Assembly: GCA_025964325.1 (NCBI GenBank) | Contig: JAOPZA010000193.1 | Location: 1 to 54,721, forward strand | DNA length: 54,721 nucleotides | From: Conexibacter sp. | GTDB lineage: Bacteria > Actinomycetota > Thermoleophilia > Solirubrobacterales > Solirubrobacteraceae | Direction of reading: 5' to 3' | Program-made: the position numbers and the translations under genes | Shown here: piece by piece, positions 19,040-23,026 of the stretch | Position numbering within the stretch: position 1 is the first letter of the stretch | How the letters are laid out: every line of letters begins with the position of its first letter | Notes under the pieces: generated by a model | What the model saw: the letters and a program-made list of their open reading frames with translations, nothing else | What the model was told of the DNA's origin: nothing | Databases searched by the model: none

Positions 19040-21525
19040 CGCGAGCGCACCTCGGCGCCCTCGCGCGCGGCCGCGTCGGGCTCGTGCAGCAGCTGCCAGA
19101 CGCGCTCGGTCGGGTTGTGCGACTCGGTCACGACGACGTCCGGGCCGAGGGCGTCCTGCAGCGCGCTGCAGACGGCGTGCAGCGGACCGCCGCCGCCCTC
19201 CCCCATCCCCTTGGAGCCGGTCGGCGTGAACGGCGACGGTCTCGGCAGGTTGTCGGTCTTGAACAGCGGCGTGTCCGGGCACGAGACGACGTGGTAGTCC
19301 CAGAAGGTGCCGTTCAGCAGCTGCCCGTGCTCGTCGTACTCGAGCGTCTCCTGCAGCGCGGCCGCGATCCCGTGCGCGGCCGCGCCGTGCACCTGCCCCT
19401 CGACGATCTGCGGGTTGATCGGCGTGCCGCACTCGTCGACGATCGCGTAGTCGAGCAGCTTGGTCGCGCCCGTCTCCTCCTCGATCTCGACGACGCACGC
19501 GTGGAACTGGCTCGCGTACGTGAGCGTCAGGTGGCCGCTCTTCGTGCGCCAGTCGGGGACGCCGAACGGCGGCCGGTAGACGAAGCGGCGGTTGAGCGTG
19601 ACGGCGTCGGCGATCTCCGGCGGCAGCGCGCCGTTGTTGGCGTACACGAGGTTGGCGATCTCCGCGAACGTCATCGCACGGTCCTCGTCGCCCTCGACCG
19701 ACAGCGTCCCGCCGACCAGCAGCAGCTCCTCGGGCGCGCACTCGAGGACGCTGGTGGCGATCGCGTAGAGGTCGTCGCGCAGCGCCTTCGCGGCGCCCAG
19801 CGCGGCGCCGATCCCGGTCACCGCGAACTGGCTCGCGTAGGTGCCCGAGAAGGCGACGTAGGCGTTGCGGGCGGAGTCGGCACCGGCCAGCACGCGCACC
19901 TCGTTGGGGCTGACGCCGAGCGTGTCGGCGACCACCTGGGCGGTCGTCGTCTCGTGGCCCTGGCCCTGCGGCACGGTGCCGAGCGCGACGCTGATCTCGC
20001 CGCCGAGGTCGAGCTTGCAGATCGCGGCCTCGCCGTTGCCCGAGTACTGCAGCTCTCTGTTGATCAGCCGCGCCTGCCCGAAGTTGCTCGTGCCGGAGTC
20101 GAGCGTCGAGCCAATCCCGATCCCGATCCGCCGGCCGGACCCGCTCGCGCGCAGCTCCGCCTGGCGCTCGCGCCAGCCGTCGTAGTCGACCAGCTCGAGC
20201 ACGCGGTCGAGCGCGGCGTGGTAGTCGCCCGAGTCGTAGAGGCAGCCGTTCGGCGTCTCGTAGGGGAACTCGTGGGCGGCGATGTAGTTCCGCCGCCGCA
20301 CCGCGACGGGGTCGAGCCCGAGCTGGGAGGCGACGATGTCGACGATCCGCTCGACCATCCAGAGGTGCTGGAGGCGCGAGTAGCCGCGGTTGGGACCGAC
20401 CGGCGTCTTGTTCGTGAGCACGGTTCTGTAGTCGACCCGCAGGTGCTGGAAGCGGTAGCAGCCGGGCAGCACCTGCGAGAAGATCACGCCGCCGAGCGGC
20501 TCGTAGCGCATGAAGGCGCCGACGTCGTCGAACGCGGTCGCGGAGAAGCCGAGGATCTGGCCGTCGGCCATCACCGGCACCTCGATCCCGCGGAACGTCC
20601 GCTCGTTGCCGTGGCAGGAGCCGACCATGTGCTCGGAGCGGTACTCCGTCCACTTCGCCGGCCGGTTCGCCTTGCGCGACAGCAGCGCAATCGCCGTGAT
20701 GTTCGTGTAGCTCGTCAGCTTCAGCCCGAACGCGCCGCCGATGTCCTGCGATCTGAACTGCAGCTGGTCGGTGCGCACGCCGAGCGCGGGCGCCATGAAC
20801 ATCGCCGCGAACTGCGGCATCTGGTTGTTCGAGAGGATCTGGATCGTGTCGGTCCCCTGCTCCCAGTCGACGACCGCCGCGTTGCACTCGAGCGGCGTCG
20901 AGGAGAAGCGGTGGAAGTGCAGGTGCGGGATCCGCACGACGTGGTCGGCGTGCTCGAGCGCCCAGTCGACGTCGCCGAACTCGTAGACGCCCTCCCAGCC
21001 GATGTTCGAGCCGATCTCGCTGTGGACCAGCGGCGCGTCCGGCTGCGTCGTCGCGACGCCGTCGAGCGTGACCGGCAGCGGCTCGTAGTCGACCTCGACG
21101 AGCGCGGCGGCGTCGCGTGCCAGCTCGCGCGTCTCGGCCAGCACGACGGCGACCGGCTCGCCGGCGAAGCGCGCCTTGCCGACGGCGAGGCAGTAGTCCT
21201 TCGCGCTGCCGCCCGGCTCGGGCGCGATCTGCGGGAAGCGGTCGGTCAGGCCGCGCACCTCCTCGCCCGTGAGCGTCGCGTAGACGCCGGGCAGCGCCTC
21301 CGCGCGGCTCACGTCGATCGCGCCGATCCGCGCGTGCGCGTGCGGCGAGCGCACGAAGTGCACGTGCCCCTGGCGATGCATCCAGAGGTCGTCGGTGAAG
21401 AGCCCCTGGCCCTGCAGCAGGCGGCGGTCCTCCTTGCGCGGGATCGACTGCCCGACGCTGGGCGCCTGCGGCGCGGGCGGCGACCAGGTCGCGATCTGCT
21501 CGTCGGTGCGGGTCGGGACGCTCAC
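19036..21525 (-). CDS. Molybdenum hydroxylase large (molybdopterin) subunit
   Basis: An 829-residue protein of the xanthine dehydrogenase/CoxL family. It has the GQSIPRKEDRRLLQGQGLFTDD opening, the SHDIGGAFG-like QDIGGAFGLK motif and the catalytic-Glu loop SKGMGEGGGG with Glu776. The active-site loop reads GPNRGYSRLQ, not the AYRCSFR of true CO dehydrogenase, so oxidation of an organic substrate (aldehyde, N-heterocycle or similar) is more likely. The GTG at 21525 overlaps the stop of the 2Fe-2S subunit. Subunit order FAD, FeS, Mo, CoxG is typical. Maturation genes are not in this window. Confidence 0.92.
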   Translation of the reverse strand: MSVPTRTDEQIATWSPPAPQAPSVGQSIPRKEDRRLLQGQGLFTDDLWMHRQGHVHFVRSPHAHARIGAIDVSRAEALPGVYATLTGEEVRGLTDRFPQIAPEPGGSAKDYCLAVGKARFAGEPVAVVLAETRELARDAAALVEVDYEPLPVTLDGVATTQPDAPLVHSEIGSNIGWEGVYEFGDVDWALEHADHVVRIPHLHFHRFSSTPLECNAAVVDWEQGTDTIQILSNNQMPQFAAMFMAPALGVRTDQLQFRSQDIGGAFGLKLTSYTNITAIALLSRKANRPAKWTEYRSEHMVGSCHGNERTFRGIEVPVMADGQILGFSATAFDDVGAFMRYEPLGGVIFSQVLPGCYRFQHLRVDYRTVLTNKTPVGPNRGYSRLQHLWMVERIVDIVASQLGLDPVAVRRRNYIAAHEFPYETPNGCLYDSGDYHAALDRVLELVDYDGWRERQAELRASGSGRRIGIGIGSTLDSGTSNFGQARLINRELQYSGNGEAAICKLDLGGEISVALGTVPQGQGHETTTAQVVADTLGVSPNEVRVLAGADSARNAYVAFSGTYASQFAVTGIGAALGAAKALRDDLYAIATSVLECAPEELLLVGGTLSVEGDEDRAMTFAEIANLVYANNGALPPEIADAVTLNRRFVYRPPFGVPDWRTKSGHLTLTYASQFHACVVEIEEETGATKLLDYAIVDECGTPINPQIVEGQVHGAAAHGIAAALQETLEYDEHGQLLNGTFWDYHVVSCPDTPLFKTDNLPRPSPFTPTGSKGMGEGGGGPLHAVCSALQDALGPDVVVTESHNPTERVWQLLHEPDAAAREGAEVRSR

Positions 21526-22007
21526 GCGAGCCCCCGCCGGGCGGCGACGTCCTCGACCGCGCGCACGATGTTGACGTAGCCCGTGCAGCGGCAGATGTTG
21601 CCCTTCAGCCCGCGGCGGATCTCGTCGAGCGAGAGCTCCTCGGCCTGCTCCAACAGCGCGGTCGCCGACATCAGCATCCCCGGCGTGCAGTAGCCGCACT
21701 GGAGCGCGTGGTGGCGCGTGAAGGCGGCCTGCAGGTCGTTCGGCTCCTCGCCCGGGCCGGAGAGCCCCTCGACCGTCTCGAGCGCGCGGCCGTCGGCCTG
21801 GACCGCCAGCTGCATGCAGCTCTTGACCGCCTTGCCGTCGACGATCACCGTGCAGGCGCCGCAGTTGCCGGAGTCGCAGCCGATGTGGGTGCCGCGAAGC
21901 CCGAGCGTGTCGCGGATGAAGTGGACGAGCAGCTGGCGGCCGGGGACGACCGCCTCGTGCGGCTCGCCGTTGACGGTCAGCTCGATCGCGTGGACGCTGT
22001 CGGGCAT
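21522..22007 (-). CDS. Molybdenum hydroxylase 2Fe-2S subunit
   Basis: A 161-residue protein with both iron-sulfur clusters intact: plant-ferredoxin-type Cys44, Cys49, Cys52, Cys64 (GCDSGNCGACTV) and the alpha-helical-domain set Cys104, Cys107, Cys139, Cys141 (CGYCTPGM and NICRCTGY). It carries electrons from the molybdopterin site to FAD. The ATG at 22007 has a GGAG twelve bases upstream, but that sequence lies inside the 3' arm of a long inverted repeat, so its access may be controlled. Overlap with the large subunit indicates equimolar synthesis. Confidence 0.93.
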   Translation of the reverse strand: MPDSVHAIELTVNGEPHEAVVPGRQLLVHFIRDTLGLRGTHIGCDSGNCGACTVIVDGKAVKSCMQLAVQADGRALETVEGLSGPGEEPNDLQAAFTRHHALQCGYCTPGMLMSATALLEQAEELSLDEIRRGLKGNICRCTGYVNIVRAVEDVAARRGLA

Positions 22008-22008
22008 C

Positions 22009-22173
22009 AGATGGTCGACTCCATGAGATTCGTGGATGCGATGGGTGCGGTGGGTGGATGCCAGGCGGTGACCGGTGTCGCAGCCGATCCTGGTTGGATC
22101 GGCAAGATGCCGGGTGCCGCATGGCGCCGCCCGACGTGCACACCGCGCCGCGAGATCGTGGAATCGACCATCT
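22009..22173 (-). promoter_or_regulatory. Structured intercistronic element (long-range stem plus inner hairpin)
   Basis: In an operon whose genes mostly overlap, 164 bases separate the FAD and 2Fe-2S genes. As RNA (minus strand), the ends pair: AGATGGTCGATTCCACGA with TCATGGAGTCGACCATCT, 16 Watson-Crick pairs plus one wobble and one mismatch. The 3' arm contains the GGAG used by the 2Fe-2S gene, and the 5' arm includes the FAD-gene stop codon. Inside lies a perfect eight-base hairpin (22083-22090 with 22096-22103). It could be a translational switch, possibly sensing molybdenum cofactor, or a mobile inverted-repeat element. Confidence 0.5.
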
Positions 22174-23026
22174 AGCTCTCCTCGGTTGCGGCGCGCACGG
22201 CGCGGCGGGCCATCACGATGGCCATCTTGGTGCGGTAGGCGGCGCTCGCGTGCACGTCGCCCGGCGGATCGAAGCCCTCGCCCGCCAGCGCCGCCGCCGC
22301 GGCGATCGCCGCGGCCGTCGGAGCGCGGCCGACCAGCGCGCGCTCCATCGCCCGCTGGCGCACCGGGACGGGGCCGCAGCCGAGCGCGACGCGCGCCTCG
22401 CGGATCGTCCCGTTGCAGCGCACGAGCGCGCTCGCGCGCGCCAGCGCCCACGAGTCGGTGCCGACCTGCAGCGTCTCGTAGCCGACGCGCTGGTCGGCGG
22501 CGAGCGCGGGCAGCAGCACACTGTCGAGCAGCTCGCCGGGTGCCAGCGCGGTCATGTACGGAGCGAGGAAGAAACCGTCCGCGTCGGTCTCGCGCGCGCC
22601 GCGGGCGCCGCGCACGCGCAGGCGGGCGCCGAGCGCGACGAGCAGCGGCGGGAAGTTCGAGGTCGGGTCGGCGAGGCAGACGTTGCCGCCGATCGTGCCG
22701 CGGGCGCGCACCTGCCGGTCGACCAGCCGCGAGCCCATCGCGGCGGTGACGGGATGCGCGGCGCGCACGAGCGGCGAGGCGGCGAGCTCGTCGTAGGTGA
22801 CGGCGGCGCCTATCCGCAGCGCGCCGTCGGGCTCGTGCGCGATCTCGCGCAGCGACGGGATCCGCGAGACGTCGACGAGCACGTCGGGATGGACGATCCG
22901 CAGCTTGAGCGCGTTCAGCAGCGTCTGGCCGCCGGCCAGCACGCGCGCGTTGCGCGTCGCGCGCAGCAGCGCGACCGCCTCCTCGACCGTCTCCGGTCGC
23001 TCGTATGCGAGGCTCGGCAGCAACAC
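22172..23026 (-). CDS. Molybdenum hydroxylase FAD-binding subunit
   Basis: A 284-residue CoxM/XdhB-type protein. FAD-binding landmarks are AGGQTLLNALKLR near residue 31 and TIGGNVCLADPTSNFPPLL near 110. A C-terminal CO-dehydrogenase flavoprotein domain includes the GTDSWALARASALV strand region. It passes electrons to the external acceptor. The GTG at 23026 (Val-Leu-Leu-Pro-Ser start) follows a GAGGGG; longer in-frame starts would add an Arg-rich non-homologous segment overlapping the DUF35 gene. It is upstream of the structured 164-base spacer. Confidence 0.9.
   Translation of the reverse strand: MLLPSLAYERPETVEEAVALLRATRNARVLAGGQTLLNALKLRIVHPDVLVDVSRIPSLREIAHEPDGALRIGAAVTYDELAASPLVRAAHPVTAAMGSRLVDRQVRARGTIGGNVCLADPTSNFPPLLVALGARLRVRGARGARETDADGFFLAPYMTALAPGELLDSVLLPALAADQRVGYETLQVGTDSWALARASALVRCNGTIREARVALGCGPVPVRQRAMERALVGRAPTAAAIAAAAALAGEGFDPPGDVHASAAYRTKMAIVMARRAVRAATEES

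What the first reader, a model, noticed from the sequence alone, without database searches (positions are those of the whole stretch)
22009..22173. Structured 165-nt element inside the molybdenum-hydroxylase operon that would bury a ribosome-binding site
Genes in this operon mostly overlap, yet a 164-base spacer separates the FAD and 2Fe-2S genes. Its ends form an 18-position stem (one wobble, one mismatch) that includes the 2Fe-2S Shine-Dalgarno, and it encloses a perfect eight-base hairpin. This looks like a translational switch; molybdenum cofactor is an attractive ligand. The alternative is a mobile inverted-repeat element with arms at its ends.
Basis: partly seen in the sequence, partly recalled or inferred. 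Interest (0 to 1): 0.65.

Follow-up and report, generated by a model that had tools for sequence, protein, structure and literature searches.

The report
Mobile hairpin repeat in molybdenum operon
The 165-base structured spacer is one copy of a small, gene-less mobile DNA hairpin that is scattered through related soil actinobacteria and landed between two enzyme genes; it is not a molybdenum sensor, although the family's single-strand fold is unusually well kept across species.

Summary
Window 22009-22173 folds end to end into one hairpin (z = -6.85), fills the whole 164-base gap between the FAD and 2Fe-2S genes, and buries the 2Fe-2S Shine-Dalgarno. The riboswitch reading fails: there is no Moco RNA match, and the orthologous operons of two congeners lack the spacer. 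This is one of at least 8 complete copies (41-191 bp) in this genome, and of a family found in 24 of 61 family-level and 17 of 119 class-level genomes searched. Its ends, CTAG|ATGGTTGATTCC, are those of ~1-kb IS982-family insertion sequences in related genomes, so it is a MITE, probably moved in trans by such a transposase (none was found in this genome). Two features go beyond an ordinary MITE. (1) A homologous ~80-nt core occurs in elements with different, IS5-type ends. (2) Between lineages the hairpin shows heavy compensatory change and strand polarity (347 G·U against 36 A·C); among recent copies in one genome that polarity is absent (23 against 21). This suggests that the folded strand matters to the element's own propagation rather than to each host site. 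Any effect on 2Fe-2S translation is inferred, not shown.

The parts
22009..22173 (+). MITE copy: full-length hairpin; the strongly folded strand is plus, antisense to the operon
22009..22026 (+). left arm of the terminal stem; begins with the end motif AGATGGTCGACTCC shared with IS982-type ISs (2 differences from AGATGGTTGATTCC)
22156..22173 (+). right arm of the terminal stem (GGAATCGACCATCT), 1 difference from the IS982-type end
22052..22132 (+). conserved core of the element, shared by sequence with elements that have different ends
22083..22103 (+). apical 8-bp stem-loop GCCGATCC-TGGTT-GGATCGGC; in G006 copies CCAATGC..GCATTGG (compensatory)
22172..22175 (-). CTAG at the element edge (mRNA sense 22175-22172); supplies the present FAD stop codon TAG (22174-22172)
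22006..22009 (-). opposite flank, CTGA in mRNA sense (TCAG on plus): imperfect partner of CTAG in the putative target duplication
22019..22022 (-). GGAG, candidate Shine-Dalgarno of the 2Fe-2S gene, inside the element; A-to-G departure from the family's GGAA
22172..23059 (-). FAD-binding subunit gene (PF00941, PF03450); start codon not settled
21522..22007 (-). [2Fe-2S] subunit gene (PF00111, PF01799), start ATG at 22007-22005

Best explanation
The spacer is a MITE: a non-autonomous, gene-less mobile element whose whole length is one hairpin. It inserted precisely at the FAD stop / 2Fe-2S start junction. Shown: many dispersed copies, ends identical to those of IS982-family elements, empty orthologous sites. 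Inferred: an IS982-type transposase from a related element, no longer found in this genome, recognised the two CTAG|ATGGTYGATTCC ends and moved the element at a CTAG-like target. In this operon the insertion pushed the 2Fe-2S start codon 164 nt from the FAD stop, supplied a new FAD stop (TAG), removed the probable old SD (GAGGAG, 5 nt from ATG in the joined flanks), and left the start codon with a GGAG inside the element's terminal stem. The most likely host effect is lower or less tightly coupled 2Fe-2S translation, not ligand control. The compensatory, strand-polar evolution of the hairpin between lineages, with no such polarity among recent copies in one genome, suggests that the fold serves the element's own spread or persistence as a single strand (RNA or DNA); this step is inference.
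For: Copies in own genome: full-length matches on C77, C238 and C6 plus partials; 25 end motifs against 0 for the reversed control pattern, pairing into complete elements of 41 to 191 bp. Family: 24 of 61 family genomes and 17 of 119 class genomes by covariance model. Ends equal to IS982-family ISs of 987-995 bp in G009, G011 and G049, and also in G052, G057, G056 and G044; transposase NF033520 IS982, E 9e-51. Empty sites: the window operon in G001 and G002; the mazG-eno site of the G006 copy in six relatives. Flanks: 24 of 52 ATG-type copies have CTAG on both sides; in TNA-type copies 8 of 12 have identical 3-bp flanks; TCA/TCA twice. Constraint: 28 both-side-changed cells, 0/500 shuffles; 893 against a shuffle maximum of 302; G·U 347, A·C 36; within G013: 23 against 21.
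Against: No IS982 transposase was found in this genome and none carrying these ends in its genus; G006 has only a broken copy with other ends. The target duplication at the window copy is imperfect (CTAG on one side, CTGA on the other, mRNA sense), and only 24 of 52 copies are perfect. CTAG is a palindrome, so it cannot by itself separate a 4-bp duplication from a 2-bp TA duplication or from a terminal motif. Strand-polar covariation is not expected of a plain DDE-mobilised MITE. In the fold model a ribosome sitting on the FAD stop does not free the SD, so no coupling mechanism is supported.
Confidence: 0.9

Rival explanations
1. Translational riboswitch of the molybdenum-hydroxylase operon that senses molybdenum cofactor and exposes or hides the 2Fe-2S SD.
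For: SD buried in a very stable hairpin; abundant compensatory changes in the family.
Against: No Moco RNA match; orthologous operons lack it; the same element sits in unrelated operons; the mRNA carries the weaker strand.
Confidence: 0.02
2. The hairpin core is a strand-specific functional RNA (or single-stranded DNA) module that hitchhikes on the ends of different ISs; mobility is secondary and the fold is what is selected.
For: Core homologous across end types with IS982-type and IS5-type ends; G·U:A·C 347:36 with strand set by sequence.
Against: Within G013 recent copies show no polarity, so individual copies are not under this constraint there; no transcript data; descent from a polar ancestor explains part of the pattern.
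Confidence: 0.35
3. The insertion was kept because it usefully tunes the FAD:2Fe-2S ratio or the mRNA's stability (domesticated MITE, as proposed for ERIC elements).
For: The GGAA-to-GGAG change gives the 2Fe-2S gene a better SD within the element; G·U over A·C excess among G000 and G006 copies, 27 to 4.
Against: One substitution in one copy; no sister strain with the same insertion to test retention; SD remains paired in the model.
Confidence: 0.2

Closest known systems
RUP (repeat unit of pneumococcus) and its partner IS630-Spn1
   Same: Short gene-less repeat whose ends match a full IS that presumably moves it (PMC2229807)
   Different: The partner here is IS982 family with CTAG-like flanks; no sequence relation tested
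ERIC / IRU elements of enterobacteria
   Same: Imperfect whole-length palindrome found in transcribed regions; reported to affect flanking transcripts (PMC2229807)
   Different: Here a parent IS is identified, and the host is the actinobacterial class Thermoleophilia
Chunjie MITE of Geobacter uraniireducens
   Same: MITE inserted in an operon; copies of variable length with conserved ends (cited in PMC10969869)
   Different: Chunjie is 178-235 bp; unrelated host; no core shared between end types reported in the text read
IS982 family insertion sequences
   Same: Terminal CTAG|ATGGTTGATTCC is the same
   Different: The element has no transposase gene and an unrelated, fully palindromic interior

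Membership tests
MITE (miniature inverted-repeat transposable element) | Short, no transposase gene, multiple dispersed copies | tested here: met
   41-191 bp; at least 8 complete copies in own genome
MITE (miniature inverted-repeat transposable element) | Terminal inverted repeats shared with an autonomous element | tested here: met
   IS982-family ISs with the same ends in related genomes
MITE (miniature inverted-repeat transposable element) | Target-site duplication | tested here: inconclusive
   CTAG both sides in 24 of 52; window copy CTAG/CTGA; TNA types 8 of 12 identical
MITE (miniature inverted-repeat transposable element) | Empty orthologous sites | tested here: met
   Window operon in G001 and G002; mazG-eno in six relatives
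MITE (miniature inverted-repeat transposable element) | Demonstrated movement by the partner transposase | not testable with these tools
   Needs a mobility assay
Moco RNA motif (molybdenum cofactor riboswitch) | Match to the Rfam covariance model | tested here: not met
   No match at E up to 1 in 21500-22700, both strands
Moco RNA motif (molybdenum cofactor riboswitch) | Conserved position in orthologous molybdenum operons | tested here: not met
   Absent from the two closest orthologous operons
REP elements with RAYT transposases | 20-40 bp palindromes with a GTAG-type tag and a tyrosine (Y1) transposase | tested here: not met
   Elements are mostly 100-191 bp with symmetrical CTAG-ATGG ends and a DDE IS982 partner; Y1 transposases were not searched for
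ERIC elements | Sequence homology to the ERIC consensus | not tested
   Only architecture was compared

The most novel reading that the evidence does not exclude
The ~80-nt core is a functional, strand-specific folded module (an RNA, or a single-stranded DNA hairpin) that has been carried by at least two different transposition systems, IS982-type and IS5-type ends, across the class Thermoleophilia, and its fold is selected for the element's own propagation.
Probability: 0.35. Interest if true: 0.7.

Novelty: new variant of a known kind. Interest (0 to 1): 0.45.

Why it matters
It replaces a tempting riboswitch claim with a documented mobile element and links that element to its probable IS982 parent. 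It also gives an unusual natural data set: many dispersed hairpins in one bacterial class, with strong compensatory evolution and strand polarity between lineages but no polarity among recent copies in one genome. That contrast makes it testable whether MITE hairpins are merely tolerated or are selected as folded single strands, and whether one hairpin core can change its transposon ends.

Tried and rejected
Moco riboswitch or any other Rfam family: only plant-microRNA-type hairpin models below their gathering scores (MIR1858, 45.6 against 137 bits), a by-product of the long stem. Conserved operon leader or spacer: orthologous junctions are empty. Ribosome-driven opening of the terminal stem as a coupling device: in the fold model three of the four SD bases stay at least 90% paired. 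PF13359-type transposase: no match over the cut-off in 12 genomes. General antisense orientation: 9 of 9 in G000 and G006, but 26 against 14 over all well-called sites, p = 0.08, so not claimed. REP/RAYT repeats: considered and dropped, because these elements are 41-191 bp with symmetrical ends and the partner found is a DDE transposase. Literature: no paper in the held library combines Solirubrobacter with MITEs, and none describes this family under the other terms tried.

Full report
WHAT IS THERE. The FAD subunit gene (PF00941, PF03450; minus strand, stop TAG at 22174-22172) and the [2Fe-2S] subunit gene (PF00111, PF01799; start ATG at 22007-22005) are separated by 164 bases. The plus strand 22009-22173 folds into one hairpin along its whole length, -120.8 kcal/mol for 196 nt against -87.2 (sd 4.9) for shuffles, z = -6.85. 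The hairpin is much stronger on the plus strand, which is antisense to the operon, than on the mRNA strand (-115.9 against -89.1 kcal/mol).

IT IS A REPEAT. A search of the own genome (4.34 Mb, 251 contigs) gave further full-length matches at 82-88% identity on contigs C77, C238 and C6, plus partial ones. A search for the end motif TAGATGGTYGATTCC with up to 2 mismatches gave 25 hits against 0 for the reversed control. These pair into complete elements of 191, 189, 188, 167, 127, 122, 104 and 41 bp; the shorter ones have lost inner parts and still fold as hairpins. In the same genus, G001 has one copy and G006 at least four.

EMPTY SITES. In the closest orthologous operons the FAD stop and the 2Fe-2S start are adjacent, with no spacer (G001 CAGAAGGAGGACTGAGATGGCC, G002 AAGGAGGCTTGACGTGCCC). 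A G006 copy lies between mazG and enolase; that junction is empty in six relatives. Joining the window's own flanks gives GAGGAGAGCTGATGCCC, a good Shine-Dalgarno 5 nt from the ATG, which the insertion has pulled away from its start codon. The new FAD stop TAG belongs to the element's CTAG edge. This is common in the family: of 64 well-called gene ends pointing at an element, 29 end with exactly two bases inside it, as expected if CTAG targets often fall on TAG stops.

THE PARENT. In G009, G011 and G049, IS elements of 987-995 bp have the same ends, CTAG|ATGGTTGATTCC (or ATGATCGATTCC), as these hairpins, with 15-16 matching bases at each end. The G009 and G011 ends match the end motif with 0 mismatches. 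Their single transposase is IS982 family (NF033520, E 9e-51, 173 bits against a cut-off of 130). IS982 relatives in G056, G057, G044 and G052 carry the same ends, and those in G079 and G046 carry a variant. None was found in the window's own genome, which is a fragmented assembly. The window element is therefore a MITE whose probable mover is, or was, an IS982-type transposase supplied from elsewhere.

TARGET DUPLICATION. Of 52 ATG-type copies, 24 have CTAG on both sides and 21 on one side only. The window copy has CTAG and CTGA (mRNA sense). The G006 mazG-eno copy has TCAG and CCAG, where most of the six relatives keep CCAG (read). CTAG is a palindrome, so the length of the duplication is not settled. 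In another subtype, with ends TNA|GAACCTGTTTC or TNA|GGGTC, 8 of 12 copies have identical 3-bp flanks, and TCA/TCA, which is not a palindrome, occurs in two further loci.

A CLASS-WIDE FAMILY WITH EXCHANGED ENDS. A covariance model built from nine genus-level copies finds elements of about 150-190 nt in 24 of 61 family genomes and 17 of 119 class genomes, up to 38 matches in one genome; some matches are the weaker reverse-strand reading of the same element. The ends differ between subtypes: ATGGTTGATTCC, GAGTCTGTTGATG, GGGTCCGTGC, GAACCTGTTTC, GGGTCTATCTCGG, GAACGTCTTTC. Because a covariance model can match any long hairpin, homology of the core was tested by sequence alone: an HMM of the core from ATG-type copies scores 34 of 41 non-ATG elements above the best of 205 dinucleotide shuffles, nearly all aligned at the same place. 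Its orientation agrees with the covariance model in 70 of 70 scoreable copies. Ends of the GAACCTG and GGGCCTATCCCGG types lie beside IS5-family transposase remnants (NF033580), one terminus each. So one core appears with the ends of at least two transposase families; the IS982 link is firm and the IS5 link moderate.

CONSTRAINT ON THE FOLD. In the nine genus-level copies, 10 of 71 pairs changed on both sides, 28 such cells against a shuffle mean of 10 and 0 of 500 shuffles as high, and slid controls collapse. Over 46 copies under 80% identity, 92% of pair cells are standard against 62% in shuffles, with 893 both-side changes against a shuffle maximum of 302 (this alignment was fitted to the model, so it leans towards the structure). 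Strand polarity is the more telling point: 347 G·U pairs against 36 A·C. A double-stranded palindrome drifting without strand-specific selection should give similar numbers. Within the recent amplification of G013 the numbers are in fact similar, 23 G·U and 21 A·C changes, whereas in G000 and G006 they are 27 and 4. The simplest reading is that the lineages that persist and spread keep the fold on one strand, while many individual copies then decay. Whether the folded strand is RNA or DNA is unknown.

EFFECT ON THE HOST OPERON. The GGAG in front of the 2Fe-2S start is an A-to-G departure from the family's usual GGAATC and makes a better Shine-Dalgarno, 11 nt from ATG. In the fold model it is almost fully paired (unpaired probability 0.002 or less), and a ribosome placed on the FAD stop frees only its last base. 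Reduced 2Fe-2S translation is plausible; regulation is not shown. The review PMC2229807 reports that ERIC elements destabilise upstream transcripts in an orientation-dependent way, so an effect on mRNA stability is an equally fair guess.

COMPARISON. Bacterial MITEs with long-hairpin transcripts are a known kind; the review PMC2229807 covers Correia/NEMIS, ERIC and RUP, and PMC10969869 covers MITEs generally and cites Chunjie as inserted in an operon. The present family fits that kind by size, absence of genes, terminal inverted repeats shared with an IS, and copy number. It differs in having a core shared between elements with IS982-type and IS5-type ends, and in measured strand-polar covariation. 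No description of this family was found in the literature searched.

LIMITS. The own genome is a fragmented assembly in 251 contigs. Gene calls around copies rest on codon-position composition plus a few Pfam checks. Shuffle controls do not remove shared ancestry. No expression or mobility data were available.

Noticed in passing
G000 C6:5662-5852, C77:2598-2785, C238:7010-7198 (loci L009, L012, L015): These own-genome copies carry an extra ~21-bp mini-hairpin (AGGCTGGCGAAGCCAGCC...) near the right arm that the window, G001 and G006 copies lack: a nested insertion or a subfamily marker.
   Followed up: no
G002 mazG-eno junction (locus L279): The empty junction of G002 reads GACCATCTAGGAG, which contains the 9 terminal bases of the element: a possible footprint of a lost copy, or chance.
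   Followed up: no
G013:C18:3991 (L138) and G013:C4:8108 (L151): Elements with ATG-type ends sit directly against elements with GAG-type ends and share one CTAG, so the edge of one element serves as a target for another.
   Followed up: partly
G000 and G006 copies: All 9 copies with well-called genes on both sides lie between co-directional genes with the strong strand antisense to them; over the whole family the bias is not significant.
   Followed up: partly
L245 (G011:C91) and L208 (G049:C28): IS5-family transposase remnants next to termini TTAGAACCTGTTTC and TAAGGGCCTATCCCGG, matching other subtypes of the hairpin; the opposite termini were not found.
   Followed up: partly
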